A stretch of 64,000 bases of DNA from Streptomyces sp. PR69. GTDB lineage: Bacteria > Actinomycetota > Actinomycetes > Streptomycetales > Streptomycetaceae. Positions 6,149 through 49,143 of the stretch are shown one piece after another (within the stretch, counting starts at the first letter, position 1; every line of letters begins with the position of its first letter). The notes under the pieces were generated by a model that did no database searches, was not told where the DNA came from, and saw only the letters and a program-made list of their open reading frames with translations. Location: the NCBI RefSeq assembly GCF_026420845.1, contig NZ_JAOWCB010000008.1, positions 62,001 through 126,000 on the forward strand, written 5' to 3'. The translations under genes and the position numbers were made by a program.

Positions 6149-6169
6149 GCTTTCTGCGCCGGGCGCAGC

Positions 6170-6580: not shown

Positions 6581-6653
6581 TTTGTGTCCCTACTTGCTGT
6601 GAACGTTTGCTGTGAACGAACGACCGCGGAGACGAACGTGGAACGCAAACTGA

Positions 6654-6681
6654 TCAACCGAACTCACCACGTTTGGTTCCG
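6654..6681 (-). promoter_or_regulatory. Sigma-BldN-like promoter of first rodlin
   Basis: Minus strand: CGGAAC (6681-6676), 16 bp, GGTTGA (6659-6654). This fits the published sigma-BldN pattern CGTAAC-N16-CGTTGA at five of six positions in each box. Predicted leader about 65 nt. Confidence 0.7.
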
Positions 6682-6978
6682 CGCCTTCACCCAAATGCCA
6701 CGGCAGGCTGATGAGCTGTTTGTGCAGTCATCGGCGGAGGGGTGAACTCCCTCCGCCGATGGGCAGATCGCCGTGCCGAACGCGCCATGACCGCATGCGG
6801 CATGGTTGCCTCGCGGCGCACTGCGCCGCCGGCTGGAGGCGTGCATTCGGCAGTGGCTTCCCATGCACGGTCTGCATGAGCAATTCCAGCATGGGCGGCG
6901 GCCCGGCGGCTGCGTTCTTCACCCGTCTGCGGAATGAACTCTGCACTGAATGCGCGGGCTTTGCGGCTTCGCGGCATG
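6682..6978. other. Non-coding spacer between the two rodlins
   Basis: About 300 bp with no credible gene. It contains an 11-bp hairpin (6730-6740 with 6750-6760) upstream of the rodlin promoter that ends no visible gene. This may be a leftover terminator from a lost gene. Confidence 0.4.
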
Positions 6979-7017
6979 ACGAAGCCCCCGGGCACTGGCT
7001 TGTGCCGGGGGCTTCGT
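6979..7017 (-). terminator. Hairpin terminator of second rodlin
   Basis: CGAAGCCCCCGGGCAC pairs with GTGCCGGGGGCTTCG with one bulged base and a 6-nt loop, about 45 bp past the stop at 7063. Confidence 0.75.
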
Positions 7018-7062
7018 CGTGGTGCCCGCGGGAGGGCGGAGGCAGGTCTGCGTGCGTCGGTA

Positions 7063-7473
7063 TTAGCTGCCGACGGCGCCGTTGCCCGAGAGGACCGGGA
7101 TGTTGCTGAGGATGTGCGACAGCGGCTCGTCGCCCTTGGCCTGGGTCGAGTTCTCGGTGCACTGCTGGTGCTGCGGGGCAGACAGGACATTGATGTCCTG
7201 GACGGTGACGGGCACAAAGCCGACGACCGAGCCGACGTTGAGCTTGTTCGGCAGCCCGATGCAGGGCTTGTTCAGCGTGCCCTGGACAAGGCTCATCTGC
7301 GGGCTCATGTCGCCCTTGGTCTTCGCGTTGCCGTAGTTCTGGACCGCCCCGTTGCCGCTGAACGACGTCGGGCCGTTGTCATTGCCGATGGCCATGGCCT
7401 GCGGAGCCATGGTCGCGCCCGCTGCCGCCACGGAGACCGTGACCGTCGCCGTCGCCATAACCTTCTTGAGCAT
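7063..7473 (-). CDS. rdl: Rodlin (tandem paralogue)
   Basis: 136 residues from ATG 7473 (MLKKVMATATVTVSVAAAG); a frame extended to 7524 has no signal-like start. It has the same architecture as the neighbouring rodlin, with cysteines in NKPCIGL and HQQCTEN. The last ~160 bp of the gene are almost identical in DNA to the neighbour, including synonymous sites, while the signal and core differ more. This suggests recent duplication or gene conversion. It carries its own sigma-BldN-like promoter and terminator, so the two rodlins appear to be separate transcripts. Confidence 0.95.
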   Translation of the reverse strand: MLKKVMATATVTVSVAAAGATMAPQAMAIGNDNGPTSFSGNGAVQNYGNAKTKGDMSPQMSLVQGTLNKPCIGLPNKLNVGSVVGFVPVTVQDINVLSAPQHQQCTENSTQAKGDEPLSHILSNIPVLSGNGAVGS

Positions 7474-7520
7474 GTTCCGTCCTTCTGTTGCGTGGGATGC
7501 CCGCTGGTGGAGCTCCCTGG

Positions 7521-7548
7521 TCAACTGGCTGTAAATGGATTGGTTGCG
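7521..7548 (-). promoter_or_regulatory. Sigma-BldN-like promoter of second rodlin
   Basis: Minus strand: CGCAAC (7548-7543), 16 bp, AGTTGA (7526-7521). Five of six bases match the sigma-BldN pattern in each box. Predicted leader about 40 nt before ATG 7473. Confidence 0.75.
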
Positions 7549-7733
7549 TCACTTCACTCAATTGGCCCTCCGAGGGAAAAGCTCAAATATGCTCAGCAGA
7601 AACATGGCTGATAGGGCAACAGGGCTGAACGGGGGCAATGGGCCGTGGCGGCCGTGTCGGGGAGGGCGGTGATCTGTTGCCATCGGCGGGAGCCCCTCAG
7701 CGGGCAGAACATCGAGCAGAAGGTGCTATTTTC

Positions 7734-7973
7734 ATGAAGAATGTCAAGAAGGCTGCCGTGGTGCTGGCCACCGCGGGCTTCGCTGTCGGCGCACCCGCGG
7801 GCCAGGCGTTCGCAGACGCCGGCGCCCACGGTGTCGCCTCCCACTCGCCGGGCGTCGGCTCCGGCAATCTGGGTCAGGTTCCCGTGCATGTGCCGATCAA
7901 TGTCTGCGGCATTACCGCCCAGCTGGGCGGATTGCTGAACCCGGCCTTCGGCAACACCTGCGTGAACGACTGA
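7734..7973 (+). CDS. Short chaplin (divergent variant)
   Basis: 79 residues from ATG 7734 (MKNVKKAAVVLATAGFAVG), preceded by AAGGTG; a frame to 7638 lacks a start signal. Signal peptide to about AFADA, then a chaplin domain with both cysteines (NVCGITAQ, FGNTCVND). The core is unusual: GVGSGNLGQVPVHVPIN instead of GVLSGN, and ITAQLGG instead of NTVN, so it is the most diverged chaplin here. It is divergent from the rodlin. I could not place a sigma-BldN-like promoter upstream. Confidence 0.92.
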   Translation: MKNVKKAAVVLATAGFAVGAPAGQAFADAGAHGVASHSPGVGSGNLGQVPVHVPINVCGITAQLGGLLNPAFGNTCVND

Positions 7974-8589: not shown

Positions 8590-8859
8590 TCAGCTGTTGA
8601 TGCAGGTGTTCCCGAAGGCGGGGTTCGCGATGCCGATGAGAATGTTGACGGTGTTGCCGCAGACGTTCACCGGTACATGCACGGGCACCTGGATCAGATT
8701 CCCGCTCAGCACGCCCGGCGAGCCCACGGCCACGCCCTTCGCGTGCGCGCCGCTGCCGTCGTCGTGTGCCGTCGCCGCGCCCGCGCCGCCCATCAGCAGG
8801 GCAGCCCCCGCCGTGACCGCCACGATGCCGGCCCTGACGTAACTCTTCATCGCTGTCAC
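8590..8859 (-). CDS. Short chaplin
   Basis: 89 residues if started at GTG 8859, which has AGGGAAAC at good spacing; the ATG at 8850 is the alternative. Signal peptide, a short charged spacer (HDDGSGAHAKG), then the chaplin core GSPGVLSGNLIQVPVHVPVN and cysteines in NVCGNTVN and FGNTCINS. It is nearly identical in its core to the chaplin at 5708. A sigma-BldN-like promoter lies at 8905-8932. Confidence 0.92.
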   Translation of the reverse strand: MTAMKSYVRAGIVAVTAGAALLMGGAGAATAHDDGSGAHAKGVAVGSPGVLSGNLIQVPVHVPVNVCGNTVNILIGIANPAFGNTCINS

Positions 8860-8932: not shown

Positions 8933-9059
8933 GGCGATCACCCGTTGGGCTAATCCATATGGTGTAACAAGCGAGTCCGACGTGATTCCCAACTAGCTTT
9001 CTGAAAAAGTGCACTCCTGCTTTCGCATGTGATCGAGCCGGAGACATGGAGCGCCAGTC

Positions 9060-10193
9060 ATGCCGAAGTCGACGGGGGCGCCCGGGTCGGCGGGCCTCGC
9101 TGCCCGCGGCGCCCTGGGAGCACTGCTTCTCCTGGCGCTCTGCGCTGTCCGGGTGACGGCCGCGCCGGCGGACGCCGCCGGCGCCGCGGCCTCCGCCGAA
9201 CGGATTCCGTTCACCCAGCGCTACCACGCCGTGCACCACGGAGGCATCGTCAGGGCCGCCAACTCCGCCATCACCTGCACCTCCCCGGTGCGGCCGGCCG
9301 TCGGCAAGGCCGCCTCCTGCCAGGAGGTCAAGCGCGGCGCCGCCGGAGTCAACGGCGGCTTCGAAATGTTCTACAACGACCTCGACTCCGACCCCAACAC
9401 CTACAACTCGACGCGCGCCGAACTGGTGCTCCCCGAGGGCTCGACCGTCCGCTACGCCCGGCTGTACTGGGGCGGCAATCTGCGGGTCAGCGAGCAGAAG
9501 CCGCCCGAGGACAACGGCCGCGCCCTGATCGCCGAGCCCGGCGGCCGGTACAAGGAAGTCCTCGCCGACACCCGCGTCGCCCACCGCGACGCGGACGGCG
9601 CCGACGCCTACCACGCGTCCGCCGACATCACCCCGCTGGTACGGCAGAGCGGCGCCGGGCTCTACACGGTCGCCCAGGTCAATGTGGCCAAGGGCAACAC
9701 GGCCGTCGGCGCATGGGGCGGCTGGACCCTGGTCGTCGTCTACGAGAACGAACGCGAACCGCTGCGCCATCTGGCCCTGTGGGACGGCTTCGAGCGGCTC
9801 GACGCGGACCGCCCCGCCCAGACGGTGACGCTGCGCGGACTGCGCGTCCCGGCCAAGGCCGCAGGCCGGGCCGGCGTCATCGGCTACGACGGCGACCGCG
9901 GCGCACACGGCGACTCGATGACCGTACGGGCGGGCGGCGGAGCGCCCTACGCCGTCAAGGACGGCGTCAACCCCGCGGACGACATCATGAATTCCACCAT
10001 CGCCGACTCCGGCCGCGCCGCCGCATTCGAACGCAGGCCCGCCCAGCAGAACACCCTCGGCTACGACTCCGATGTGTTCGACATCAGACCCGCCCTCTCA
10101 CGGGGCGGCGCCGAGCTGGCATTCCGGTTCACCGCTGAGAGCAAGGGTTACTTTCTCGGCGCTCTCTTCGTTGAAACGGACTCCCGCCTCTGA
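9060..10193 (+). CDS. Exported DUF3344-like surface protein
   Basis: 377 residues: an N-terminal hydrophobic export segment (about residues 17-45) and one large beta-rich domain with NGGFEMFYNDLDSDPNTYNS, ARLYWGGNLR and AGWTLVVVYE-like strands. This is the module that precedes DUF11 repeats in actinobacterial wall proteins. Here it stands alone, with no DUF11 repeats and no LPXTG or Tat motif. No catalytic motif is seen. It begins the exopolysaccharide gene run, 43 bp before the first glycosyltransferase, so a role in polymer export or anchoring is plausible (inference). Confidence 0.75.
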   Translation: MPKSTGAPGSAGLAARGALGALLLLALCAVRVTAAPADAAGAAASAERIPFTQRYHAVHHGGIVRAANSAITCTSPVRPAVGKAASCQEVKRGAAGVNGGFEMFYNDLDSDPNTYNSTRAELVLPEGSTVRYARLYWGGNLRVSEQKPPEDNGRALIAEPGGRYKEVLADTRVAHRDADGADAYHASADITPLVRQSGAGLYTVAQVNVAKGNTAVGAWGGWTLVVVYENEREPLRHLALWDGFERLDADRPAQTVTLRGLRVPAKAAGRAGVIGYDGDRGAHGDSMTVRAGGGAPYAVKDGVNPADDIMNSTIADSGRAAAFERRPAQQNTLGYDSDVFDIRPALSRGGAELAFRFTAESKGYFLGALFVETDSRL

Positions 10194-10236
10194 ACATTTC
10201 TCCGGAACCACAGTCCATGGACGAAGAGAGCCGCGC

Positions 10237-11489
10237 GTGCTGCACAACAGTTGGACTGAGACACGCCAACTGACGGTCTTCCATCTGGTCCAGCCGGTGG
10301 ATGGGGGAGTCGCACGGGTCGTCGCCGACCTGGTGCGCGCCCAGACCGCCGAGGGCATCCGGACGGTCGTCGCCTGTCCGCCCGGCGGGCGGCTGGCGGC
10401 CGACGCGGCCGCCGCCGGCGCCCAGGTCCACCCCTGGCCAGCCGTACGCGCCCCCGGCCCCCAGCTCGCCCGCGAGGTGCTGACCGCCGCCCGGCTGATC
10501 CGCCGCACCGCGCCCCACCTGGTCCACGCCCACAGCGCCAAAGCGGGGCTCGCCGGGCGGCTCGCCGTACGCGGGCGGCTGCCCACCGTCTTCCAGCCGC
10601 ACGCCTGGTCCTTCGACGCCGTGGAGGGGCGCGCCGCGGAACTCGCCCTGCGGTGGGAGCGCTACGGCACCCGCTGGGCCACCCGCACCCTGTGCGTCAG
10701 CGAAAGCGAGCGGCGGGCGGGTGAACGCGCCGGACTCGCCGCCCGCTGGTGCGTCATCCGCAACGGCATCGACCTCGACCACTTCAGGCCCGGCGGCGGC
10801 GACGGCGGCGCGGATCTCGGCCCCGACGCCGCCGTCAAGGCGGCCCGCGCCGAACTGCCGCAGCTCGCGCCGTTCCCGCCCGACGCGCCCCTGGCGGTGT
10901 GCGTCGGGCGGCTGTGCCGCCAGAAGGGCCAGGACATCCTGCTGCGTGCCTGGCCGCAGCTGCTCAGCGCGGTGCCGGACGCCCGGCTGGCCCTCGTCGG
11001 CGACGGCCCCGACCGGGAACGGCTGATGCGGATGGCGCCGCCCGGTGTGCTGTTCGCGGGCGCGAGCCGGGACACCCGGTCATGGTTCCGCGCCGCCGAC
11101 GTCGTCGTCCTCCCGTCCCGGTGGGAGGGCATGGCGCTCGCCCCGCTGGAAGCGATGGCATGCGGCCGGCCCGTCGTCGTCAGCGACGTCAGCGGAGCCC
11201 GCGAGAGCCTGCCGCCCGGCGCCGTCGCCCACGCCCTGGTGCCGCCAGAGGATCCACGGGCCCTGGCGTCGGCGATCGGCAGGCTGCTGGCCGACCCCGT
11301 GCTCCGCGAGGAACAGGGCCGGGCCGCCCGCGACCACGCCCGCGCCGCCTGCGACGTACGGCAGACCGCCGCGGCCGTCTCGGGCCTCTACCGGGAGCTG
11401 CTGAGTCACGAACCGCCGAGGAGCCAGGGACCGCTGAGCCAGGAACCGCCGAGCCCCTCCCGCCCCCGGATGAGGAAGCGCACCACGCG

Positions 11490-11493
<4 letters not shown>
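10237..11493 (+). CDS. GT4-family glycosyltransferase
   Basis: 418 residues from GTG 10237; the open frame extends upstream into the previous gene, but this is the first start beyond that gene's stop. N-terminal Rossmann half begins QLTVFHLVQPVDGGVARVV. The C-terminal nucleotide-sugar half holds CVGRLCRQKGQDILLRAW, GDGPDRERL and the EX7E-like PSRWEGMALAPLEAMACG. It is a retaining GT-B enzyme, cytoplasmic face. It probably extends the lipid-linked repeat unit; the sugar is unknown. It overlaps the next gene by ATGA, implying coupled translation. Confidence 0.88.
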
Positions 11494-13025
<1,532 letters not shown>

Positions 13026-14357
13026 ATGGCCGTCGCCGCATGGACGGACGCCCCCGTATGGAAGGTTCCGCCGGTGCGGGCGCCCTGGCGGCTGCTGCCG
13101 CTCGCGGCCACCGTGCTGCTGACCGCCGTCCCGTACCGGGGGGACGGCGCGGGCCCCGCCGACCTCGCCTCCGGGCTGCTGGTGCTCACCTGCCTCGGAT
13201 ACGTGCTGCACCGCAGGGCCCGGCCGCTCAGCGCCGCGGCCGCCGTCGTGCTGGGCCTGCCCGCGCTGGGCGCCGCCGTCGCCACCGCGACCGCGGCCGA
13301 CCCGCTGGCCGCGCTGCCCGGCTATGTGCGCTATGTGCAGGTCTTCGTCCTCGTCCCGGCGGCCGTGGTGCTGCTGGTGCGGGACGCACGGGACTTCCGG
13401 TTCGTCCTCGGCGCGCTGGTCGCGCTCGCGCTGCTCGAAGGAGGCGTCGGCGTCCATCAGTACGCGACCGGCACCGGCGCGTCGTACATGGGCGAGGACA
13501 TCAGGGCGGTGGGCACCTTCGGGCCGACCGGTGTGATGGGCATGGCCACGGTCGTCTCCTACGGGCTGCTGGCGGCGGTCGCGCTCGCACTGGCCGCGCC
13601 CGCGAGCGCGCCCCGCCGGCTGCGGCCGGCCGCGCTCGCGGTCGCGGCCGTGCTCGTCGTGCCGCTCGCGCTCTCCTTCAGCAGAGGCGCGTGGATCGCC
13701 ACCGCGCTGGCCCTCGCCGCGATGCTGCTGCTGGCCGGAGCGCGCCTGGCGGTCCGGGTCTTCGCGGCGGCAGCCGCGGCCGCGGTGGTGCTCGTGGGCG
13801 GGCTCGGCCTCGGCTCCGCGATGGTCTCGGAGCGGCTGAGCAGCATCACCCAGGTCACGGACGCGCCCGACCGGTCGGTGAACGACCGGTACACCATGTG
13901 GGCGGCGGCCGCGTCCATGTGGCAGGAGCGGCCGGCGGCCGGCGTCGGCCTGAAGGGCTTCCCGGCGCACCGGGACGGCCATGCCTCCATCGCGCTGTCG
14001 TCGGGCAGCGACACGGCGGGCGCGGGGCAGGGCTTCCAGAAGCAGCCGCTGCTGTCGCCGCACAACATGTATCTGCTGGTGCTCAGCGAGCAGGGCCTCA
14101 TCGGCGCGACCGCCTTCATCGGCGGCTGGGCGGCGATCCTGGCCGCCGGACTGCGCCGGGCCGCCCGCGCCCGGCGCGGGCACGGCCGCGGCACGGCGGC
14201 CGACTGCGGCCTCGCCGCCGCCGGGCTGCTGCTCTGGCAGACCGCCGACTTCCTGTACGCCGACATCGGCGGCCCCTCCACGGTCCTCACGGGCGTGGTC
14301 CTCGGCCTCGCCGCGTGGTGGGCCTTCGCCCACCGCCGTGAGGCGGCCCGCCCATGA
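13026..14357 (+). CDS. O-antigen ligase/Wzy-like polymerase
   Basis: 443 residues, nearly all hydrophobic, with about 11 membrane helices. A large extracytoplasmic loop (about residues 270-355) carries the Wzy_C pattern: NDRYTMWAAAASMWQERPAAGVGLKGF and LLSPHNMYLLVLSEQGLIGA. Conserved Arg and His in such loops act in polymer or ligase transfer. With a flippase and a Wzz-like protein nearby, this is the probable polymerase of a Wzx/Wzy pathway. Start directly abuts the previous stop. Confidence 0.88.
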   Translation: MAVAAWTDAPVWKVPPVRAPWRLLPLAATVLLTAVPYRGDGAGPADLASGLLVLTCLGYVLHRRARPLSAAAAVVLGLPALGAAVATATAADPLAALPGYVRYVQVFVLVPAAVVLLVRDARDFRFVLGALVALALLEGGVGVHQYATGTGASYMGEDIRAVGTFGPTGVMGMATVVSYGLLAAVALALAAPASAPRRLRPAALAVAAVLVVPLALSFSRGAWIATALALAAMLLLAGARLAVRVFAAAAAAAVVLVGGLGLGSAMVSERLSSITQVTDAPDRSVNDRYTMWAAAASMWQERPAAGVGLKGFPAHRDGHASIALSSGSDTAGAGQGFQKQPLLSPHNMYLLVLSEQGLIGATAFIGGWAAILAAGLRRAARARRGHGRGTAADCGLAAAGLLLWQTADFLYADIGGPSTVLTGVVLGLAAWWAFAHRREAARP

Positions 14358-16405
14358 CGGGCCCGCGCCCCGAGCACCCCGGCCCCTCGGGCGGCCCAGC
14401 TGCCCCGCCCTCGGCGACCGCCGCCGCCTCCCGGCCGGGGGGCGGTGCCGGTGTGTCGTCGGATGTGGGGGTTTCGGCGGGCGGCGCGGGGGACGGCGCA
14501 GATTGTGGTGCCGCACCCGTCCTGCCCTCGGCGTCCGCCGCCGGCTCCCGGCCGGGGGGCGGTGCCGGTGTGTCGTCGGGTGTGGGGGTTTCGGCGGGCG
14601 GCGCGCCGTCCCCGGCGCGTCCGGTTCGCGCTTCGGGGGACGGCGGAGATTGTGGTGCCGCACCCGTCCTGCCCTCGGCGTCCGCCGCCGGCTCCCGGCC
14701 GGGGGGCGGTGCCGGTGTGCCGTCGGCCGTGGGGGCTCCGGCGGGCGGCGCGCCGCCACCCGTGCGCACCGATGCCGCTTCGGCGGACGGCGGCGGGCGG
14801 GGCATCGCGTGGGCCGCCGGGGTGACCGCGGGGCTGACCGTGGCCGGGGCCGTGCTCGGGCTCGGGCGGGATCAGGCCATCGCACACCTCTTCGGGGCCA
14901 GCGTCGACAGCGACGCGTTCCTCATCGCCTGGACCGTGCCCGAGATGGCCGCCACGCTGCTCATCGAGGACGCCATGGCCCTCGTCCTCGTCCCCGCCTT
15001 CAGCCATGCCATCGCCCGCCGCGCCGCCGCCTCCGGCTCGTACGACCCCGTGCGGAATCTGGTGGCCGCCACCTTCCCCCGGCTCTTCGCGCTGCTGGCG
15101 CTCGGCGCGGGGCTGCTCGCCCTGGGCGCGCCCGTCGTCGTCGGCGTGCTGGCCCCCGGCTTCAGCGATCCCGGGCTCGCCGTCGACTGCACCCGGCTGA
15201 CCGCCGCCACCGTCCTCACCTTCGGGATCGCCGGGTACTTCAGCGCCGTCCTGCGCGCCCACCGCTGCTACACCCCGCCCGCGGGCGTCTATGTCGCGTA
15301 CAACGTAGGCATCATCGGCTGCACGCTCACCCTGCACTCCCTGTGGGGGGTGCGCGCGGCCGCCGCCGGAGTGGCCCTCGGCGGGCTGCTGATGGTGCTG
15401 GTCCAACTGCCTTTCGTGGTGCGGAAGGCAGGACGGCCCCGGCTGCTGCGGGCCACCCGGCGGCGCTCCCGCCCGCCGCTCGGCCTCGCCCTGCTGGCCC
15501 CCGTCGTCCTGTTCGCGGTCAGCAGGCAGTCGCAGGTCCTGGCGGAGCGCTTCCTGGCCGCCTCCCTTCCGCCGGGCGCGATCTCGCACCTCAACTACGC
15601 GCAGAAGGTGGCGCAGCTCCCCATGGTGCTGTCGCTGATGATCGTCACGGTCACCTTCCCCGTCGTCGCCCGCGCACTCGCCGACGGCGAGCACGACAGG
15701 GCCCGCCGCCGCGTCGAGCGGGATCTCGCGCTCGCCGGTCTGGTGGTGCTCCTCGGCGCGGCCCTCGTCGTGGGGTACGCCCCGCAGATCATCGAAGTCC
15801 TCTTCCAGCGCGGCGCGTTCGACGCCGAGGACACCCGGGCCACCGCCACCGTGATGCGCGTCTACGCCGCCGGGCTGCTCGGCCACTGTCTCGTCGGGGC
15901 GCTCGGCCGGCCCTTCTTCGCGGGCGACCGGCCCATCTGGTATCCGGCCGCGGCCATGGCCGCGGGACTGGCCGTCACCGTCGCCGCCGGGGCGGTGGCC
16001 GTCGGCCCCTGGGGCGTCTACGGCATCGCGGCCGCCAACGCCCTCGGCATCAGCGTCACGGCCGTGCTGCTGCTGGGCGGCCTGGGCCGCCGCGTCGTCG
16101 CGATCCGCGTACCCGCCGTGCTGCGTTCCCTGGCCCGGCTCGCGCTCGCCGCCGCGGCCGCCGCCGCGGCCGGACTGCTGGCCGCGCCGCTTCTCCCGAA
16201 CCCGCTGCTCAGCCTCGCGGCCGGCGGAGTGCTCGCGCCCGCCGTGTTCCTGGCCGCCGCCCTCGCCGTACGCGCCCCCGAAGCACGCCAACTGCTGTCC
16301 CTCGCCCGCCGGAAGGCCACCCGGCCGCCGCGAAGCCCCCGCCCGCCCCGCCCGCCCCGACAGCCCCGCCCGCCCCGACAGAGGATGAACCGTCATGTCC
16401 GCTGA
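14354..16405 (+). CDS. MurJ/Wzx-like lipid-linked oligosaccharide flippase with repeat-rich N-terminal extension
   Basis: 683 residues. The first ~150 are a low-complexity Gly/Pro/Ser segment made by a three-copy DNA repeat. The MurJ/MviN core follows with about 14 helices: GLGRDQAIAHLFGASVDSDAFLIAWTVPE at the start, then AKVAQLP-type and FQRGAFDAEDT motifs. MurJ itself is usually about 550 residues or carries a C-terminal domain. The gene sits in a polysaccharide operon, so it more likely flips the exopolysaccharide repeat unit than lipid II. The C-terminus is Pro/Arg-rich. Overlaps both neighbours (4 bp and 11 bp). Confidence 0.88.
   Translation: MTGPRPEHPGPSGGPAAPPSATAAASRPGGGAGVSSDVGVSAGGAGDGADCGAAPVLPSASAAGSRPGGGAGVSSGVGVSAGGAPSPARPVRASGDGGDCGAAPVLPSASAAGSRPGGGAGVPSAVGAPAGGAPPPVRTDAASADGGGRGIAWAAGVTAGLTVAGAVLGLGRDQAIAHLFGASVDSDAFLIAWTVPEMAATLLIEDAMALVLVPAFSHAIARRAAASGSYDPVRNLVAATFPRLFALLALGAGLLALGAPVVVGVLAPGFSDPGLAVDCTRLTAATVLTFGIAGYFSAVLRAHRCYTPPAGVYVAYNVGIIGCTLTLHSLWGVRAAAAGVALGGLLMVLVQLPFVVRKAGRPRLLRATRRRSRPPLGLALLAPVVLFAVSRQSQVLAERFLAASLPPGAISHLNYAQKVAQLPMVLSLMIVTVTFPVVARALADGEHDRARRRVERDLALAGLVVLLGAALVVGYAPQIIEVLFQRGAFDAEDTRATATVMRVYAAGLLGHCLVGALGRPFFAGDRPIWYPAAAMAAGLAVTVAAGAVAVGPWGVYGIAAANALGISVTAVLLLGGLGRRVVAIRVPAVLRSLARLALAAAAAAAAGLLAAPLLPNPLLSLAAGGVLAPAVFLAAALAVRAPEARQLLSLARRKATRPPRSPRPPRPPRQPRPPRQRMNRHVR
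14428..14760. repeat. Three imperfect direct repeats in the flippase gene
   Basis: The block CTCCCGGCCGGGGGGCGGTG begins at 14428, 14545 and 14692. The second and third units share about 70 further bases, including GATTGTGGTGCCGCACCCGT at 14501 and 14648. Spacings of 117 and 147 bp are both multiples of 3, so the frame is kept. The repeats encode the disordered N-terminal extension. Confidence 0.85.
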
Positions 16406-17147
16406 GACGGCGCTTCGCACCGCCGCCCCCGGCAGCCGCGCACGCCCGCACCGCGCATGGATCTGGATGTACCACTCGGCCGCCGACCCGTCCGACGATC
16501 CGTACGGCATCACCGTCGCCCCCGAGCGGCTCGACCTCCAGCTGCGCGCCCTGCGCCGCCGGGGCCTGGCCGGCGTCGGCGTCTCCACGCTGCTGCGCGC
16601 CCGTGCGGCCGGCCGCGGCCGCGGGCTGGTAGGGCTCACCTTCGACGACGGCTACGCCGACTTCGTCGACAGCGCCCTGCCCGTGCTGCGCCGCCACGAC
16701 TGCACCGCGACCGTCTTCGTGCTGCCCGGCCGGCTCGGCGGCGTCAACGCATGGGACCCGGAGGGGCCCAGAAAGCCGCTGCTGACCGCCGACCAGATCA
16801 GGGCCGTGGCCGCGGCGGGCATGGAGGTCGGCTCGCACGGCCTGGTCCACCGGGACCTGACGGCAGCCGGCGACGACGTGCTGCGCGAGGAGACCCGCGG
16901 CAGCCGCGAGCTGATCCGGGAGCTCACCGGCCGTGCGCCGGACGGCTTCTGCTACCCGTACGGCTACCTCGACCGCCGGGCCGCCGACGCGGTGCGCGCC
17001 GCCGGTTACGCGTACGGCTGCGCCATCGATCCGGGCCCGCTGCTCGGCGACGTACACGCCCTGCCCCGCACCCACATCAGCCAGGCGGACCGAAGCGCAC
17101 GGCTGCTGGCCAAGCGGCTCCGCCATGAAGTCAGGACCCGCCGGTGA
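16395..17147 (+). CDS. Polysaccharide deacetylase-family protein
   Basis: 250 residues, NodB-like (CE4, PF01522). MYHSAADP opens the domain. LTFDDGYADF gives the catalytic Asp84 and metal Asp85, and GSHGLVHRDL supplies the metal histidines; CYPYGYLD follows. No signal peptide is evident, so the protein may act in the cytoplasm, or on lipid-linked intermediates, unlike secreted CE4 enzymes. Starts inside the flippase gene and overlaps the next gene by 4 bp. Probable role: removal of N- or O-acetyl groups from the polymer or precursor. Confidence 0.85.
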   Translation: MSAETALRTAAPGSRARPHRAWIWMYHSAADPSDDPYGITVAPERLDLQLRALRRRGLAGVGVSTLLRARAAGRGRGLVGLTFDDGYADFVDSALPVLRRHDCTATVFVLPGRLGGVNAWDPEGPRKPLLTADQIRAVAAAGMEVGSHGLVHRDLTAAGDDVLREETRGSRELIRELTGRAPDGFCYPYGYLDRRAADAVRAAGYAYGCAIDPGPLLGDVHALPRTHISQADRSARLLAKRLRHEVRTRR

Positions 17148-18328
17148 AGGCGCTGCACATCATCACCGGTCTGGGCGTCGGCGGCGCCGAGCAGCAGCTG
17201 CGGCTGCTGCTGCGGGAACTGCCGTTCACCTGCGATGTGGTGACGCTGACGAACCCGGGCTCGGTCGCCGACGGGCTGCGCGCCGACGGGGTTCGCGTCG
17301 CCGACCTCGGCATGCGCGGCAACCGCGATCTGGCGGCGCTGCCCCGGCTGGCCCGGCTGATCCGCCGCGGCGGCTACGACCTGGTGCACACGCATCTGTA
17401 CCGGGCGTGTGTCTACGGGCGCGTCGCCGCCCGGCTCGCCGGGGTGCGCACCGTCGTGGCCACCGAACACTCGCTCGGCGAGACGGAGATCGAGGGACGG
17501 CCGCTGACCCGCGGCGTCCGCGCCCTGTATCTGGCGACCGAGCGGCTGGGGTCGGCGACCGTCGCCGTGTCCGGGACCGTCGCCCGGCGGCTGCGCGGCT
17601 GGGGCGTCCCGGCCGATCGCATCCATGTCGTGACCAACGGCATCGACGCGGCCCGCTTCCGCTTCGACAAGGACGACCGGGCCGCCGTCCGCTCCCGCCT
17701 CGGCGTCCCCGACCACGCCTTCGTCGTCGGAGGCGTCGGCCGGCTGGCGCCGGGCAAGCGCTTCGATCTCCTCGTACGGGCCGTGGCCGCGCTGCCGGAC
17801 GCCGTGCTGCTGCTCGCGGGCGACGGGCCCGAGCGGCGGCGGCTGGGCACCCTCGCCGAGCGGCTGGGGGCGGCCGGACGCATCCGGCTGCTGGGCGAGT
17901 GGGACCAGCCGGACATCCCGGGGCTGCTGTCGGCCATGGACGTCTTCGTCTCCGCCTCCCGGGAGGAGGCCTTCGGGCTGGCCGTCGTGGAGGCGCTCGC
18001 CGCTGGGCTGCCGGTCCTCCACGGGGCGTGCCCGGCTGTCGACGACCTGCCCCCGGGGAGCGCGCCGGGGGCCCGGCGGCTGTTCGCGGACTCCCCGCAC
18101 GCCGCGGCCGGCGGAGACGACGAAGACGATGCACGGGACGCGGCGGAGCTGGCGGCCGCGCTGCGGGAGCTGTCCGCGGCGGCCGGACAGCGTCTGGACC
18201 CGCCCCCGGTCGTTCACCACTACGACATCGCACGCAGCGCAGAGCGTCTGACGGAGGTTTACGCGCACGCCCTCGCGGGCGCCGCTGCCGCCCCCACACC
18301 CCCTTCGACCAGGAGAGCACTCCCATGA
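17144..18328 (+). CDS. GT4-family glycosyltransferase
   Basis: 394 residues from GTG 17144 (VKALHIITGLGVGGAEQQL). GT-B fold with HTHLYRACVYGRVAARLAG in the acceptor half and GVGRLAPGKRFDLLVRAV, GDGPERRRL and SASREEAFGLAVVEALAAG in the donor half. Relative to homologues, the C-terminus has an acidic insert GDDEDDARDAAEL near residue 325. Second glycosyltransferase of the operon, so the repeat unit probably has at least three sugars counting the initiating one. The last codon region overlaps the next start. Confidence 0.88.
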   Translation: MKALHIITGLGVGGAEQQLRLLLRELPFTCDVVTLTNPGSVADGLRADGVRVADLGMRGNRDLAALPRLARLIRRGGYDLVHTHLYRACVYGRVAARLAGVRTVVATEHSLGETEIEGRPLTRGVRALYLATERLGSATVAVSGTVARRLRGWGVPADRIHVVTNGIDAARFRFDKDDRAAVRSRLGVPDHAFVVGGVGRLAPGKRFDLLVRAVAALPDAVLLLAGDGPERRRLGTLAERLGAAGRIRLLGEWDQPDIPGLLSAMDVFVSASREEAFGLAVVEALAAGLPVLHGACPAVDDLPPGSAPGARRLFADSPHAAAGGDDEDDARDAAELAAALRELSAAAGQRLDPPPVVHHYDIARSAERLTEVYAHALAGAAAAPTPPSTRRALP

Positions 18329-19482
18329 CCGAGTCGCCCCGGACCGCCGACCCCGACAGGCCGGAAGAGCCGGACGAGGCCAAAGAGCCCCGGCAGCCCG
18401 ACGCCGAAGCCGGCCGCCCCGGAGCGGCCGCCGAAGAGACACCCGCTCCGGCCCGCCGACGGCGGCTGTTCCCGCGCCTCAAGCGGAGCCGGACCGGCAC
18501 CCTCGAAGCGGCCGGCGCCGCCACGCCGTCCGCGGACCCGGACGCACAGGGCCCCGACGCACCGGGCCTCGACGAACCGGGCCCCGACGCACAGGCGGAG
18601 CCCGGCACCCAGGACCCCGGCACGCAGACGGGCCCCGGCACACGGAAAGCCCCCACTTCGCGGGCTGATGCCGACGGCGCTCGGGACGAGACGGCAGCGC
18701 AGCCGCCCGCCAGGGCCGGCAGCCGCCTCCGCAGGCCGCTGCGAGCCGTCGGCGTGGCCCTGAGCGGTGCCCTGAGCGGTGTCCTGAGCGCGGCCCTGAA
18801 TGGAGCGAGCCGGGCGCGGAACCGGCTCACCCCGCTGCCCCGCTGGTGGCCGCTCCCGCTGTGCGTGCTGCTCGGCACGGCGTGCGGAGTGGCGTACGGG
18901 GAGCTCAAGACGCCGGAGTACGCGGCCACCAGCTATGTCGTCGCCGTCCCCGGCGAGGACGGCGACCCCTCCGTGGCCCTCGGCTACGCCCAGGCGTACG
19001 GCCGGATCGCCACCAGCGACTCCACCATCCGCCACGCGCGCGTGGCCGCCGGGGTCCCGGCGAAGACGCTGCGCGCCCATGTGCGGACGGAGACCTCCCC
19101 CGACTCGCCGATGATCGCGATCACCGGCACCGCGGCCAAGCCCGCACAGGCCGCGGAGTTCGCCAACGCCGTCGCGGACGCCGTGTTCGTGAGCAGCAAT
19201 CAGGTCTCCAAGAACACAAACGTCAAGCTGATCCTGTTCTCCCAGGCGATCGCGCCGGGCAGCCCGGTCTCCCCGTCGACGCCGGTCAGCGCGGCCGTCG
19301 GCGGCTGCACCGGCGGGCTCCTCGGCGGTCTGGCGCTGCTCGTGCGGCCGCAGCACCGCGCCGGAGGCCGCCGGGACGCCGAGGCCGGAGCGCCGCCGTC
19401 GGGCGACGAGCCGTCCGCGGCCGCCGTCCCCGCACCCGCGCAGCCGGGCGCCGTGGCCGCCGACCAGCGGGAGCTGGTGTGA
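18325..19482 (+). CDS. Wzz/CapA-like polysaccharide chain-length regulator
   Basis: 385 residues. The first ~170 are disordered and acidic/Pro-rich. Then membrane helix 1 (about 174-195, WWPLPLCVLLGTACGVAYGE), an extracytoplasmic domain (YVVAVPGEDGDPSVALGYAQAYGRIATSDSTI...) and helix 2 (about 322-340). A ~45-residue cytoplasmic tail lacks a Walker-type BY-kinase domain. This is the topology of Gram-positive co-polymerases. The Pro-rich motif expected before helix 2 is partly visible (SPVSPSTPVSAAVGG). Its long disordered N-terminus is unusual. Confidence 0.78.
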   Translation: MTESPRTADPDRPEEPDEAKEPRQPDAEAGRPGAAAEETPAPARRRRLFPRLKRSRTGTLEAAGAATPSADPDAQGPDAPGLDEPGPDAQAEPGTQDPGTQTGPGTRKAPTSRADADGARDETAAQPPARAGSRLRRPLRAVGVALSGALSGVLSAALNGASRARNRLTPLPRWWPLPLCVLLGTACGVAYGELKTPEYAATSYVVAVPGEDGDPSVALGYAQAYGRIATSDSTIRHARVAAGVPAKTLRAHVRTETSPDSPMIAITGTAAKPAQAAEFANAVADAVFVSSNQVSKNTNVKLILFSQAIAPGSPVSPSTPVSAAVGGCTGGLLGGLALLVRPQHRAGGRRDAEAGAPPSGDEPSAAAVPAPAQPGAVAADQRELV

Positions 19483-20633
19483 GCGCGGAGCTGCGGCAGG
19501 GGCTCGCGGTCACACTCTGCCGCGATGCGGGCGACTTCGCGCGGCTGCGGGACGAGTGGAACGCGCTGCACCGGAGCTGCGCCGCGGCCACCCCGTTCCA
19601 GAACCACGCCTGGCTGCACTCGTGGTGGCTGTCGTACGGGGCGGAGGGGCGGCTGCGCGTGGTGCTGGCCCGCCGTGCCGGCCGGCTGATCGGCGCGGCC
19701 CCGCTGATGCTCGTCCACCGTCCCATGCCGCTGCTGACGCCCATGGGCGGGAGCATCTCCGACTTCTCCGACCTGGTCGTCGACGACGCGGAGGAGCCCG
19801 CCGCGCTGACGGCTCTGGAGCACGGGCTGCTCCGGGCCGCCCGGCACGCGGTGATCGATCTGCGGGAGGTGCGGCCGGGCGCGGTCGCCGAGCGGCTGTA
19901 CGAGCGGTGGAGCGGGGCCCGTGCCCGGCTGTCCGACTCGGTGACGATGGAGCTGCCGGCCCTTCCCATCGAGGAGGTGATCAAGACTCTGCCGCGCACC
20001 AAGGCGCAGCGGGCCCGCGCCAAACTGCGCAAGATCGACGTACAGAAGATCGAGGGCCATAGCGTCAGCGCGGCCGAGGCCGCGGCCGCCGTGGACCATA
20101 TGCTGCGGCTGCACGAGCTCCAGTGGCGGGGCCGCGGCATCAATGTGGAGCATCTTCAGCCGCGGTTCGCCAGCCATCTGGCGCGGGCGGCGGAGCGGAT
20201 GATCCCCGAAGGGGAGGCCGCCATCACCGAGTGGCGGCTGGACGGCGAGGTGGTCGCCGCCCATATGACGCTGCTGTCGAACGGGCTGACCGGCAGTTAT
20301 CTGTACGGCGCCCATCCCGATCTGCGCAAGAAGAAGGTCGATGTGGCGGCGATGCTGCTGCGCCGCGACGCGCTCCACTCCGCCGTGACGGGCCGCAGCG
20401 TGCTGAGCATGCTGCGCGGGGCGGAGTCGTACAAGAACGCCTGGGGGCCGCGGACGGTGGTCAACCAGCGGCTGCTGCTGGCCCGGCCGTCCCTGGAGCC
20501 GCTGCTGCGGCTGCGTCAGTCGCAGGCGCGCTGCCGGGAGCGCGCGGTCGAGGAGGTGCGCAGCCGCTTCCCGGAGGCGCGCGAGTGGCGGAACCGGCTG
20601 AACAGCTGGCGGGCGGACGGGGTGGGGCGCTGA
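19479..20633 (+). CDS. FemAB/CelD-like GNAT acyltransferase
   Basis: 384 residues from GTG 19479, overlapping the previous stop (GTGTGA arrangement). The family (Acetyltransf_6/BioF2-like) is recognised by WNALHRSCAAATPFQNHAWLHSWW near the N-terminus and by HMTLLSNGLTGSYLYGAHPDLRKKKVDVAAMLLRRDAL and SMLRGAESYKNAWGP in the second GNAT half. Relatives acetylate or aminoacylate polysaccharides and peptidoglycan. It is the last gene of the run that starts at 9060, so decoration of the exopolysaccharide is likely. Confidence 0.85.
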   Translation: MSAELRQGLAVTLCRDAGDFARLRDEWNALHRSCAAATPFQNHAWLHSWWLSYGAEGRLRVVLARRAGRLIGAAPLMLVHRPMPLLTPMGGSISDFSDLVVDDAEEPAALTALEHGLLRAARHAVIDLREVRPGAVAERLYERWSGARARLSDSVTMELPALPIEEVIKTLPRTKAQRARAKLRKIDVQKIEGHSVSAAEAAAAVDHMLRLHELQWRGRGINVEHLQPRFASHLARAAERMIPEGEAAITEWRLDGEVVAAHMTLLSNGLTGSYLYGAHPDLRKKKVDVAAMLLRRDALHSAVTGRSVLSMLRGAESYKNAWGPRTVVNQRLLLARPSLEPLLRLRQSQARCRERAVEEVRSRFPEAREWRNRLNSWRADGVGR

Positions 20634-20662
20634 GACGCCCGGACCCCGCCCGCCCGTCGGCG

Positions 20663-22036
20663 TCAGAACGGCCAGTTCTCGTCGTCGAGCCAGGACAGGT
20701 CGGGGAACTGAGGCACCTCGGGGATCTCGGGGATCTCAGGCACCCCGGGCGTCTGCGGAGTCTGCGGGTCCTGAGGATTCTGCGGCCAGGACGGGTCCCC
20801 GGGCATGCCGGGGATGTCCACGCAGACCTCGTCCTGCGGCACCCACTGGCTGAGCCAGTCGCCGAGGGAGAGCGGTACGCACCACTCGGTGGAGTTCACC
20901 GGAGGCTCGACCGGCGCAGGCTCCACGGGCTCCGGCTCGACCGGTACGGGGTCGACGGGCTCCGGCTCCACCGGCACGGGGTCGACGGGCTCCGGTTCCA
21001 CCGGGTCGACCGGCGCGGGCTCGACGGGACCCTGGAGGCCGAACAGCTTCTCGCGGAACACCGCCGCCGACCGCGGATTGGACTTGCACTGCCAGACGCC
21101 GTGCGGACAGTAGTCCGTGATGGTGTGGTACAGCGGCTTGTGCGTGTCGAACCACTCCAGCATCCGGCGCATGTACTCCGGATTGTCCCCGTTCCGGAAA
21201 AGACCCCACTCCGGATACGAGATCTCCTTGTTGTGCGCGCGGGCGAAGTCGACCTGAAACTGCAGCCCGTAGGGAGTATGCGCCTGTTCATCGAACGAAC
21301 GGCCGGGCGGCTGGTCGTACGAGTCCATTCCGATGATGTCGACGACACCGTCTCCGGGATAGCACTCAGTCCAGGGAATCGCGTCCGTTCCCCGGTTCGG
21401 CGCGAAATCGAAGCGGAACTGCTGGCCGGGCACCGAACGCATGGCTGTGACGATGCGGTTCCAGTACTGCTTCCACGCCCGGGGGTCCGGCGCGCAGCGG
21501 TGGGTGTACGTGGTGCCGTTCATCTCCCAGCCGAGCACGATCACTGTGTCCGGCGCGCCCTGCCCCACCAGCCGCTCGGCCAGGGTGCGGAAGTGGTGGT
21601 CGAACCGTCCGGACGCGCCCGCCCGCAGCATGCGCCGCACCTCCCAGTCGGAGAGGCGGGCCTCGTTGCGCTCCAGCATGGGCACATTGAGGACCAGCAT
21701 CCGGTCCTCGGCCCCGCGCCGCCACTGGGTCCACGGCTGAAGAAACTCCGGACGGCCCTCGATATTGACCCACCGGTCGCCCGGCAGATAGGTGTGACCG
21801 ACTTTCAGTTCGGCGCCGCCCAGCCAGTTCGACAGCTCTTGGATGCGCTGGACGCCCGGAGAGCCGTAGTGGAGATAGGCCCCCACGGCGGCCGCCGATG
21901 CGCTGCCGGGCCCCGGATTCCCTCCGTCGCCCGTGGCCGCGCTCGCCTTCTGCTCTCCGAACACTCCGACGGAGACGAGGAGACTGGCGGCCGCGGTGCC
22001 GATGCCGATGCCGGTGAGACGGCGCCGTCGAGGCAT
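20663..22036 (-). CDS. Secreted GH26-like glycoside hydrolase with Pro/Glu/Val repeat tail
   Basis: 457 residues; AAGGAGGAGCC precedes ATG 22036. N-terminal signal ends near ASAAT. The TIM-barrel domain has the GH26-type acid/base Glu171 (LGWEMNGTTY) and probable nucleophile Glu276 (ISYPEWGLF), with WVNIEGRPEFLQPW at the start. After about residue 345 comes a VEPEPVDPVP repeat (three copies) and a Pro-rich tail with cysteines. GH26 enzymes cut beta-mannans or related glucans. It is convergent with the polysaccharide operon, so it may trim or release that polymer. A direct repeat of CTGATGGGCTGT lies in the promoter region (22050-22085). Confidence 0.82.
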   Translation of the reverse strand: MPRRRRLTGIGIGTAAASLLVSVGVFGEQKASAATGDGGNPGPGSASAAAVGAYLHYGSPGVQRIQELSNWLGGAELKVGHTYLPGDRWVNIEGRPEFLQPWTQWRRGAEDRMLVLNVPMLERNEARLSDWEVRRMLRAGASGRFDHHFRTLAERLVGQGAPDTVIVLGWEMNGTTYTHRCAPDPRAWKQYWNRIVTAMRSVPGQQFRFDFAPNRGTDAIPWTECYPGDGVVDIIGMDSYDQPPGRSFDEQAHTPYGLQFQVDFARAHNKEISYPEWGLFRNGDNPEYMRRMLEWFDTHKPLYHTITDYCPHGVWQCKSNPRSAAVFREKLFGLQGPVEPAPVDPVEPEPVDPVPVEPEPVDPVPVEPEPVEPAPVEPPVNSTEWCVPLSLGDWLSQWVPQDEVCVDIPGMPGDPSWPQNPQDPQTPQTPGVPEIPEIPEVPQFPDLSWLDDENWPF

Positions 22037-22219
22037 GGCTCCTCCTTAAGGGCTGTTCTGATGGGCTGTTTCTGATGGGCTGTGGATTGCTCAGACACCT
22101 TCGACCGTATGCGGAAAGTCTTATTAATGGGCTGAGTGAATGCCCGTCAGTAGGCCATTAGCGATATGCCCCGGCGTGTCGGCACCCATCCAGGTGACGA
22201 AATATGGAATGAGGCGGTG

Positions 22220-23602
22220 ATGCGTATGCCGGCGTCCGACGGATCACCCCCCGCGCTGGTGCTCCGGCTCGACCGGAACCCCTTTCACCATGGAACTCTG
22301 GGCGCGGTCAGGTCCCTGGGCCGCGCGGGCGTCGAGGTGCACGCCCTGGTCGAGGCGGCCGACAGCCCGGTCGCGCGCTCCCGCCATCTGCGCCGGGCGC
22401 ATGTGCGGCCGCCCGGCGAGATGACGCCCGCGCTGTTCGTGGAGACGCTGCTGACGGTCTCCGACCGGATCGGCCGCCGGGCCGTGCTCATCGCCATGGA
22501 CGACTTCAGCGCCATCGAGGTCGCCGCCCAGTCGTCCCTGCTCGACTCCCGCTTTCTCTTTCCCCGGCAGCCGGACGGGCTGCCCGAGCGGCTCGCCGAC
22601 AAGTCGGGACTAGCGGAGCTGTGCGCGGCGGCCGGCATCGCCCACCCGGCGACCCTCGTCCCCGGCAGCGCGGCGGAGGCCGCCGCGGCCGCACGCTCGC
22701 TCGGCCTGCCGGCCGTGGCCAAATGGAGCCGCCCCTGGCTGCTCGCGCCGGGCGCGGCCGAACTGCGCAGCACCACCCTGGTGACCACGCCCGACGACGC
22801 CCGCAGGCTCTACGACCGCAGCGAGGCCGCGGGCAGCAGCCTGCTGCTCCAGCGCCTCGTACCCGGCGGGCCCGCGACGGACTGGTTCTTCCACGGCTGC
22901 TTCGCCACCCGCTCCCCGGGCCCGGCCGCCTGTCTGCTCGGCGGCACCGGCCGCAAGGAACTGTCGTGGCCGCCGCGTACGGGACTGACCGCCATGGGCC
23001 GGTGCGCTCCGAACCCGGCCGTGCGCGAGGCGGCCCTGCGGCTTGCCTCCCACACCGGCTACCGGGGCATCCTCGACCTCGACTTCCGCCGCGACGAGCC
23101 CTCGGGGACGTACTGCCTCCTCGATGTGAACCCCCGGCCGGGCGCACAGTTCCGCCTCTTCACCGACCCGGCCGGCCTCGACGTCGTACGCGCCCTCTAC
23201 CTCGACCTCACCGGGCGGGATGTGCCCGCGGGCGACCCCAAGGCCGGACGGGTCTTCATCGCCGAGAACTATGCGCTGATCTCCGCACTCGCCGCACGCT
23301 CCGCGCCGCTGCCCTCCCGCCGCCGCCCGCCTCGCACGGCGACGGCGCCGGCAGAACCCCCGGCAGGAGTGGAGACGGCCTGGTTCGCGGGCGACGACCC
23401 GCTGCCCTTCCTCGCCATGGCCAGGACCTGGCTGGGGCGCGGACTCGGCAAGGCCGTACGGCGGCTGCGCCGGGGGCCGCGCCGCGCCGCGCCCGCCGAC
23501 GCCCGCCCTGCCGTGCCCGGCCCCGCCGAGCACCCCACCCGTCTCACGGACCCGAACGAAGGAGCGAGACAGAACCATGCGCGATGCCAGCGGAACCCAT
23601 GA
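22220..23602 (+). CDS. ATP-grasp domain protein
   Basis: 460 residues from ATG 22220, with GAGG six bases upstream; a start at 22166 is less likely. Opens with a Rossmann-like preATP-grasp half (LVLRLDRNPFHHGTLGAVRSLGRAGVEVHAL). The ATP-grasp core shows GLPAVAKWSRPWLL, a long hydrophobic strand QRLVPGG, and metal residues in GILDLDFRRDE and LLDVNPRPGAQFRLF. Such enzymes join a carboxylate to an amine or other nucleophile using ATP, and near polysaccharide genes often make amide-linked decorations. The substrate is unknown. The next gene overlaps by 26 bp. Confidence 0.85.
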   Translation: MRMPASDGSPPALVLRLDRNPFHHGTLGAVRSLGRAGVEVHALVEAADSPVARSRHLRRAHVRPPGEMTPALFVETLLTVSDRIGRRAVLIAMDDFSAIEVAAQSSLLDSRFLFPRQPDGLPERLADKSGLAELCAAAGIAHPATLVPGSAAEAAAAARSLGLPAVAKWSRPWLLAPGAAELRSTTLVTTPDDARRLYDRSEAAGSSLLLQRLVPGGPATDWFFHGCFATRSPGPAACLLGGTGRKELSWPPRTGLTAMGRCAPNPAVREAALRLASHTGYRGILDLDFRRDEPSGTYCLLDVNPRPGAQFRLFTDPAGLDVVRALYLDLTGRDVPAGDPKAGRVFIAENYALISALAARSAPLPSRRRPPRTATAPAEPPAGVETAWFAGDDPLPFLAMARTWLGRGLGKAVRRLRRGPRRAAPADARPAVPGPAEHPTRLTDPNEGARQNHARCQRNP

Positions 23603-49142: not shown

Positions 49143-49143
49143 C

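What the first reader, a model, noticed from the sequence alone, without database searches (positions are those of the whole stretch)
9060..20633. Wzx/Wzy-type exopolysaccharide operon beside the hydrophobic-sheath genes
Eight overlapping genes give a full initiation, extension, flipping, polymerisation, chain-length and decoration set, led by a DUF3344-like exported protein. Placed directly after the chaplin/rodlin island, it may make a polymer that anchors the sheath. I know no described streptomycete polymer that fits this set.
Basis: inference. Interest (0 to 1): 0.6.

Follow-up and report, generated by a model that had tools for sequence, protein, structure and literature searches.

The report
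Chaplin-linked Streptomyces exopolysaccharide operon
The stretch is a real, intact set of genes for building and exporting a surface sugar polymer, found in most sampled Streptomyces species and usually beside genes for the water-repellent spore coat, but its closest constant partner is a sugar-cutting enzyme and not the coat proteins, and no paper found here describes the polymer.

Summary
Observation confirmed: eight tightly packed genes (10237-20633) encode a Wzx/Wzy-type exopolysaccharide pathway (phosphoglycosyl transferase, two GT4s, MurJ-type flippase, Wzy, Wzz-like protein, CE4 de-N-acetylase, FemX-like tandem-GNAT), preceded by a DUF3344-like exported protein. Wzy occurs in 87 of 121 Streptomyces genomes; all eight genes keep their order in 68 of 74 loci. 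A chaplin lies in the same 20 kb in 57 of 72 loci, in two contexts, so the predicted synteny exists. The sheath-anchoring idea is weakened: the operon lacks the BldN-type promoter of rodlins and chaplins, is independent of rodlin presence (p=0.81), is absent beside intact chaplin/rodlin islands, and in another family has no chaplin beside it. Its constant partner is a secreted GH26 (83 of 87 versus 5 of 34 genomes; within 10.3 kb in 69 of 74 loci). A conserved 60-bp element precedes the operon in 65 of 147 distinct loci and the window. Best reading: a matrix polysaccharide whose amino sugars are deacetylated and re-acylated before flipping, as proposed for holdfast HfsH/HfsK, and trimmed by its own GH26. 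It is a widespread, apparently uncharacterised member of a known kind.

The parts
8961..9023 (+). Conserved ~60-bp cis element upstream of the operon head (putative promoter/operator)
   Evidence: profile finds it in 71 of 154 loci (65 of 147 distinct) plus the window, in 70 of the 71 ahead of DUF3344 or of the first GT4; alignment; only place in own genome with fewer than 3 mismatches; no Rfam match
9060..10193 (+). DUF3344-like exported protein, head gene; signal peptide then beta-rich domains
   Evidence: (25.9 bits, cut-off 27.2), alignment, model; match in 35 of 72 loci
10237..11493 (+). GT4 glycosyltransferase (GT4a)
   Evidence: E297 and E305 invariant
11490..13025 (+). Polyprenyl-phosphate sugar-1-phosphate transferase (initiating enzyme, TIGR03025)
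   Evidence: motifs conserved
13026..14357 (+). Wzy-type O-antigen polymerase/ligase-like protein
   Evidence: 87 of 121 Streptomyces genomes
14354..16405 (+). MurJ-family flippase (Wzx role)
   Evidence: two other MurJ-family matches in the genome
16395..17147 (+). CE4 polysaccharide de-N-acetylase with no visible signal peptide or TM segment (taken as cytoplasmic)
   Evidence: D85, H148 and H152 invariant in 146 of 146 aligned rows
17144..18328 (+). GT4 glycosyltransferase (GT4b)
18325..19482 (+). Wzz/PCP-like chain-length protein, no kinase domain found
   Evidence: weak matches only
19479..20633 (+). FemX/HfsK-like tandem-GNAT acyltransferase (Acetyltransf_6)
   Evidence: model pLDDT 83.8; Foldseek FemX and MprF
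20663..22036 (-). Secreted GH26 glycoside hydrolase, convergent, Pro-rich C-terminus
   Evidence: two candidate catalytic Glu invariant in 118 of 118 rows; within 10.3 kb of Wzy in 69 of 74 loci
22166..23602 (+). ATP-grasp protein (CarB-like, weak match), accessory neighbour
   Evidence: within 3 kb of a GH26 in 47 of 48 other genomes with a match of 50% identity or more; also in another family
23583..24887 (+). FAD/NAD(P)-binding oxidoreductase, accessory neighbour
   Evidence: next to the ATP-grasp gene in four loci of another family
8590..8850 (-). Short chaplin divergent from the operon
5708..7973 (.). Rest of the chaplin/rodlin island: chaplins 5708-5941(-) and 7734-7973(+), rodlins 6170-6580(-) and 7063-7473(-)

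Best explanation
The operon makes a Wzx/Wzy-type extracellular polysaccharide. The transferase at 11490 loads a sugar-1-phosphate on undecaprenyl phosphate; two GT4 enzymes extend it, giving a repeat of about three sugars if each adds one. While the unit is still on the cytoplasmic face, the de-N-acetylase frees an amine on an N-acetylhexosamine and the FemX-like tandem-GNAT puts an acyl or aminoacyl group on it, as proposed for HfsH and HfsK of the Caulobacter holdfast. The MurJ-type flippase turns the unit outward, Wzy polymerises it, the Wzz-like protein sets its length, and a dedicated secreted GH26 trims or releases it. The likely role is a cohesive or adhesive matrix on the hyphae, made under its own promoter element and not with the sigma-BldN sheath regulon. 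Shown here: gene content, order, conservation, partner genes, promoter differences. Inferred: reaction order, sugar identity, acyl donor, adhesive role.
For: Domains, packed genes and gene order in 68 of 74 loci. Invariant motif residues in the deacetylase, GNAT and GH26. Deacetylase without visible signal peptide or TM segment. GNAT model resembles FemX, FemA and MprF; the holdfast paper says that HfsK's closest solved homologue is FemX, with two GNAT domains in tandem, and suggests that it acylates amines exposed by HfsH (PMC5362036, passages). GH26: 83 of 87 Wzy-positive versus 5 of 34 Wzy-negative genomes, Fisher p=1e-18, linked in 69 of 74 loci, also linked in another family. Own cis element. 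No BldN-type promoter at DUF3344 (0 of 71 distinct loci), at the first GT4 of second-type loci (0 of 28) and hardly any at GH26 (2 of 106), against 50 of 54 rodlin and 133 of 244 chaplin upstream regions (same picture with duplicates). Two other MurJ-family proteins serve the genome.
Against: The Wzz assignment is weak. Wzy_C proteins can be O-antigen or protein-glycan ligases. The GNAT has no match in 3 of the 72 unnamed-genome loci that reach its place and in 3 of 4 fully covered loci of another family, so re-acylation is not essential to the polymer; in Hirschia hfsK was dispensable for holdfast (PMC8449245). Acyl-CoA versus aminoacyl-tRNA donor is undecided. No nucleotide-sugar genes point to the sugars. 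No expression or chemical data.
Confidence: 0.6

Rival explanations
1. Sheath-anchoring polymer: the polysaccharide is made with the chaplin/rodlin layer and holds it on the hypha.
For: Chaplin in the same 20 kb in 57 of 72 loci, in two contexts; divergent arrangement with chaplin 8590-8850. [quoted passage not shown]
Against: Independent of rodlins (66 of 87 versus 27 of 34, p=0.81); no BldN-type promoter; chaplin/rodlin islands without operon genes in the stretches fetched from nine Wzy-negative genomes, and with a lone GT4a-like match in a tenth; cluster without adjacent chaplins in another family; 6 of 20 genomes have the cluster with no chaplin near.
Confidence: 0.15
2. Wall-linked glycopolymer: the polymer is joined to peptidoglycan by LCP proteins encoded elsewhere.
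For: Gram-positive glycopolymers are often wall-linked (general knowledge; PMC7831098 seen in listing and abstract start only).
Against: No LCP protein among the cluster proteins scanned; a secreted GH26 is its constant partner, though that would fit either reading.
Confidence: 0.2
3. Protein O-glycosylation system: the Wzy_C protein is an oligosaccharyltransferase that glycosylates surface proteins, perhaps DUF3344 or chaplins.
For: Wzy_C family overlap with ligases (TIGR03097 at 44.9 bits against cut-off 188, TfpM at 15.2 against 600); DUF3344 heads the operon in 35 of 72 loci.
Against: A Wzz-like protein is present; DUF3344 has no match in about half of the loci; the ligase-family scores are far below cut-off.
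Confidence: 0.1

Closest known systems
Caulobacter holdfast (hfs) pathway, HfsE/HfsH/HfsK
   Same: Lipid-linked oligomer built by GTs, flipped and polymerised, with a de-N-acetylase and a FemX-like tandem-GNAT that modify it (PMC5362036 and PMC8449245 passages; HfsE and HfsH models match below cut-off).
   Different: No outer-membrane export or Hfa anchors; flippase is MurJ-family; both modifiers sit in one operon, whereas hfsK lies outside the hfs locus; GH26 partner; no c-di-GMP evidence.
Actinoplanes missouriensis wps-1/2/3 and imp clusters (sporangium matrix)
   Same: Actinobacterial Wzx/Wzy-type EPS loci expressed in development; wps-3 has a polysaccharide deacetylase and a BioF2-like acetyltransferase; two GH5 hydrolases, GimA and GimB, cut the imp-dependent matrix (PMC13390465 and PMC12691653, abstract and passages).
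   Different: Different gene sets (sulfotransferases in wps-1; GH5, not GH26); homology was not tested because the sequences were not fetched.
Ebosin ste cluster (Streptomyces sp. 139)
   Same: Streptomyces EPS cluster with priming transferase, GTs, polymerisation and export genes (PMC11078827 passages).
   Different: ste1 to ste27 plus two orfs in the figure legend, with sugar-precursor synthesis and regulation genes; not this compact set.
MatAB poly-GlcNAc and CslA/GlxA glucan
   Same: Streptomyces surface glycans (PMC5972031 and PMC11022532, listings and abstract starts only).
   Different: Made by matAB and cslA/glxA; no synthase of that kind among the operon's domain matches.
XrtA/PEP-CTERM-associated EPS loci
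   Same: The best NCBIfam matches of both GT4s and the second-best of Wzy are from that system.
   Different: All scores far below cut-off; no exosortase or PEP-CTERM match among the proteins scanned.

Membership tests
Wzx/Wzy-dependent polysaccharide pathway | Polyprenyl-phosphate phosphoglycosyl transferase | tested here: met
   PF02397 203 bits, TIGR03025 322 bits
Wzx/Wzy-dependent polysaccharide pathway | MOP-superfamily flippase | tested here: met
   MurJ family 217 bits; Polysacc_synt only 18.6 bits, under cut-off
Wzx/Wzy-dependent polysaccharide pathway | Wzy polymerase | tested here: met
   PF04932 64 bits, cut-off 31.7; polymerase versus ligase activity not separable by sequence
Wzx/Wzy-dependent polysaccharide pathway | Wzz/PCP co-polymerase | tested here: inconclusive
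   17.9 bits (cut-off 25.5) and 26.3 bits (cut-off 296)
Wzx/Wzy-dependent polysaccharide pathway | Polymer produced | not testable with these tools
   no bench data
Holdfast (hfs) system | CE4 deacetylase paired with FemX-like tandem GNAT | tested here: met
   GNAT without match in some relatives
Holdfast (hfs) system | HfsE and HfsH equivalog models above cut-off | tested here: not met
   142 of 750 and 37.5 of 400 bits; it may work like holdfast but is not filed as a member
Sheath (sigma-BldN) regulon | BldN-type promoter upstream | tested here: not met
   0 of 71 DUF3344 and 0 of 28 second-type GT4a heads; consensus recalled, recovered in rodlin upstream regions
Sheath (sigma-BldN) regulon | Gene neighbourhood with chaplins | tested here: met
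   57 of 72 loci
Ebosin ste cluster | Nucleotide-sugar synthesis and regulator genes in the cluster | tested here: not met
   none among the proteins of 9060-24887
Known RNA regulator upstream | Rfam family match | tested here: not met
   none in the window at gathering score or in 8840-9160 at E up to 1

The most novel reading that the evidence does not exclude
The operon makes a previously undescribed holdfast-like glue of Streptomyces: a polysaccharide whose amino sugars are deacetylated and then aminoacylated from tRNA by the FemX-like enzyme, so that the charged polymer binds chaplin amyloid and fixes hyphae to surfaces, with the GH26 as its release enzyme.
Probability: 0.1. Interest if true: 0.8.

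Novelty: new member of a known kind. Interest (0 to 1): 0.5.

Why it matters
In the sample, 87 of 121 Streptomyces genomes carry the Wzy of this locus, yet only passing mentions of single genes that probably belong to it were found in print. It names a concrete, compact target for the question of which glycans build the streptomycete matrix, and gives a ready substrate test through its GH26 and a regulatory lead through the 60-bp element.

Tried and rejected
DUF3344 function by fold: the model is weak (pLDDT 66) and the Foldseek TM-scores to the query of the 50 rows shown are 0.26 or lower; VIA-align Z up to 8.3 over about 115 residues of one beta-sandwich (furin P-domain, GH86 and BcsB modules) is within the tool's stated background. 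No function is claimed.

RNA regulator: no Rfam match. A recalled sigma-BldN consensus over the whole window is no more frequent than chance (31 found, 30.9 expected); only the comparison of promoter regions was informative. In one search the GT4a row (302) included cross-hits to the other GT4, so, one best hit per locus, replace it.

Duplicates: the 74 unnamed-genome loci and the 80 named loci share 7 identical loci, so 154 loci are 147 distinct. Counts contain those duplicates; the deduplicated figures are. The 80 named loci are the best matches to the window's Wzy and so over-represent its relatives: the element is in 24 of the 74 unnamed loci.

Identification with S. coelicolor/S. lividans: SLIV_24125/SLIV_24130 (MurJ and O-antigen ligase) and Q9KYG0 (MPA1 protein beside a GT and a deacetylase) fit by product and neighbourhood (PMC10768272 and PMC3924187, passages); orthology was not tested. 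That the region corresponds to about SCO2706-SCO2715 is recalled; text searches for tags SCO2703-SCO2704 and SCO2706-SCO2715 gave two papers, with one mention each of SCO2704 and SCO2713, neither about an EPS operon. PMC8092295 (MglA) was read in passages: not this cluster.

Rows dropped: 12 of the 86 non-own Wzy-positive genomes were left out of the 20-kb fetch because they lie on short contigs or near contig ends; two fetched loci (L093, L099) lack the 3' half and are not in the 72. Five second-type loci were left out of the element's training set. In one search four GNAT sequences (L132, L161, L173, L179) were left out after one search failed on L132.
Full report
What is there. Eight genes from 10237 to 20633 follow each other with junctions from an 11-base overlap to zero spacing, and a DUF3344-like exported protein lies 43 bases ahead. 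Pfam and NCBIfam give a phosphoglycosyl transferase, two GT4 enzymes, a Wzy_C protein, a MurJ-family flippase, a CE4 polysaccharide deacetylase, a weak Wzz-like protein and an Acetyltransf_6 protein. The genome has 4 phosphoglycosyl transferase-family matches and 3 MurJ-family matches in all, so this flippase need not be the lipid II flippase, and other EPS loci may exist.

How widespread. The Wzy protein has a match in 87 of 121 Streptomyces genomes at E up to 0.001. I fetched 20 kb around Wzy in 74 of the 86 non-own genomes. All eight genes are in the same order in 68 of the 74; three have no GNAT match, one no match to the priming transferase, and two are cut by contig ends. Among the 80 named loci, several of them cut short, it is 69. 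Motif residues are invariant: D85, H148 and H152 of the deacetylase in 146 of 146 rows, E171 and E276 of the GH26 query in 118 of 118, K319 of the GNAT in 137 of 137 (rows include a few duplicates; that these are the catalytic residues is from general knowledge of the families). At class level, 27 of 246 genomes match at E up to 1e-20: 22 Streptomyces and 5 from four genera of one other, unnamed family.

Two contexts and the chaplin link. In core-type loci the operon follows chaplins, often rodlins, and in 35 of 72 loci DUF3344. In a second type, among named strains found in S. globisporus, S. anulatus, S. microflavus and others, it has no DUF3344 match and a chaplin follows the last gene. A chaplin lies in the 20 kb in 57 of 72 loci: within 4 kb upstream of the first GT4 in 44, within 3 kb downstream of the GNAT in 14. 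A random position would have one in roughly 2% of cases by my own estimate. Loci are related, so this is two contexts and not 57 independent events.

Evidence against a sheath function. (1) A BldN-type promoter, from a recalled consensus that rodlin upstream regions recovered, scores 9.5 or more of 12 in 50 of 54 rodlin and 133 of 244 chaplin upstream regions of distinct loci, about 2% in shuffles, but in 0 of 71 DUF3344, 0 of 28 second-type first-GT4 and 2 of 106 GH26 upstream regions (also 0 of 36 for the first GT4 in core loci). Start codons were projected, so single cases may be off. (2) Wzy presence is independent of rodlin presence: 66 of 87 versus 27 of 34, p=0.81. (3) I fetched 15 stretches from 14 Wzy-negative genomes, chosen by their rodlin or GH26 matches. 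In nine genomes the stretch (12 to 20 kb) shows rodlins and chaplins without any operon gene; in a tenth (L195) there is only a lone GT4a-like match; G009 and G087 hold part of the operon; G045 and G110 end at contig edges. Whether these islands sit at the same chromosomal site was not tested. (4) In the other family, four of five loci show transferase, Wzy, MurJ, deacetylase, GT4b, Wzz, GT4a, convergent GH26, ATP-grasp protein and FAD oxidoreductase, with the GNAT in one and no chaplin match in the 20 kb; the fifth is cut by a contig end. The chaplin-domain matches of these five genomes lie elsewhere.

The constant partner. GH26 occurs in 83 of 87 Wzy-positive and 5 of 34 Wzy-negative genomes (Fisher p=1e-18); of those five, G009 and G087 keep part of the operon, G045 keeps it up to a contig end, G110 is a short contig, and G029 is a 33%-identical match. 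It lies within 10.3 kb of Wzy in 69 of 74 loci, 55 convergent and 14 in the same direction (one of the 14, G011, is a 38-residue remnant); in two of the rest it is on another contig and in three it has no match. The ATP-grasp gene at 22166 has a long match of 50% identity or more in 49 genomes, the window's own included; in 47 of the 48 others it lies within 3 kb of a GH26. It has no match in the second-type genomes named in the listed part (G004, G018, G028, G050, G051, G054).

Own control element. A profile built from 26 second-type loci and the window finds a 60-bp element in 71 of 154 loci and in the window; 27 of these 72 are the training sequences. In distinct loci it is 65 of 147, and in the unnamed sample 24 of 74. 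In 70 of the 71 loci it lies in the same direction ahead of DUF3344 or of the first GT4; in L046 it lies between the two. There is one hit per locus and none elsewhere. Its core includes GCGAGTC, TCTG and AAAGT-CACT. In the window's genome only this place matches with fewer than 3 mismatches. The remaining 83 loci have no match at E up to 1, and their upstream regions show other or little conservation.

Mechanism. The deacetylase shows no signal peptide or TM segment, so it is taken to act inside. The GNAT model (pLDDT 83.8, pTM 0.81) resembles FemX, FemA, MprF and other tandem-GNAT enzymes, with TM-scores to the query of about 0.45 to 0.57 for the FemX and MprF rows. In Caulobacter, HfsK is a tandem-GNAT protein with FemX as nearest solved homologue, and the authors propose that it might acylate amines exposed by HfsH (PMC5362036, passages); in Hirschia, hfsH but not hfsK was needed (PMC8449245, passages). 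I take this as the working model. It is an analogy: the Hfs models score far below cut-off.

Literature. Eight full-text searches aimed at the operon or its surroundings found no description of it; two more were on DUF3344 and on the holdfast. Most subscription papers, and preprints, are not held. Two passing mentions probably concern its orthologues. Ebosin, MatAB and CslA/GlxA are different loci (listings).

Verdict. This is a widespread, apparently unstudied EPS locus of a known pathway kind.

Noticed in passing
window 8102-8401 (-): Small peptide gene inside the chaplin/rodlin island, matched at 40-53% identity in several relatives, with no Pfam match.
   Followed up: partly
window 4717-5373 (-): Secreted DUF4360 protein beside the chaplin/rodlin island, found at 76% identity beside it in L044.
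   Followed up: no
window 28807-30652: Tyrosinase-like gene (29268-30125, by eye) next to a further chaplin (30298-30495, -) with a BldN-type promoter one mismatch from the recalled consensus at 30625-30652.
   Followed up: no
window 42098-51842: Run of genes that looks like a Flp/Tad pilus locus (by eye from the translations).
   Followed up: no
window 56065-59589: Protease-like and ESX-like genes (by eye) with a local G+C drop to 0.59.
   Followed up: no
L199 (G087) and L194/L212 (G009): Partial copies of the operon: several biosynthetic genes have no match or are short while GH26 and others remain.
   Followed up: partly
G030, G044, G092, G100: Wzy match split into two or three pieces, which may be frameshifts or assembly errors.
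   Followed up: no
several genomes, e.g. G074:C53:10249, G003:C2:3921880: Second GH26 copies with a stop inside, some within about 20 kb of the operon.
   Followed up: no
L168: Record titled Microtetraspora glauca carries the same locus as G074, placed by the genome tool in the window's genus: probably a misnamed Streptomyces.
   Followed up: partly
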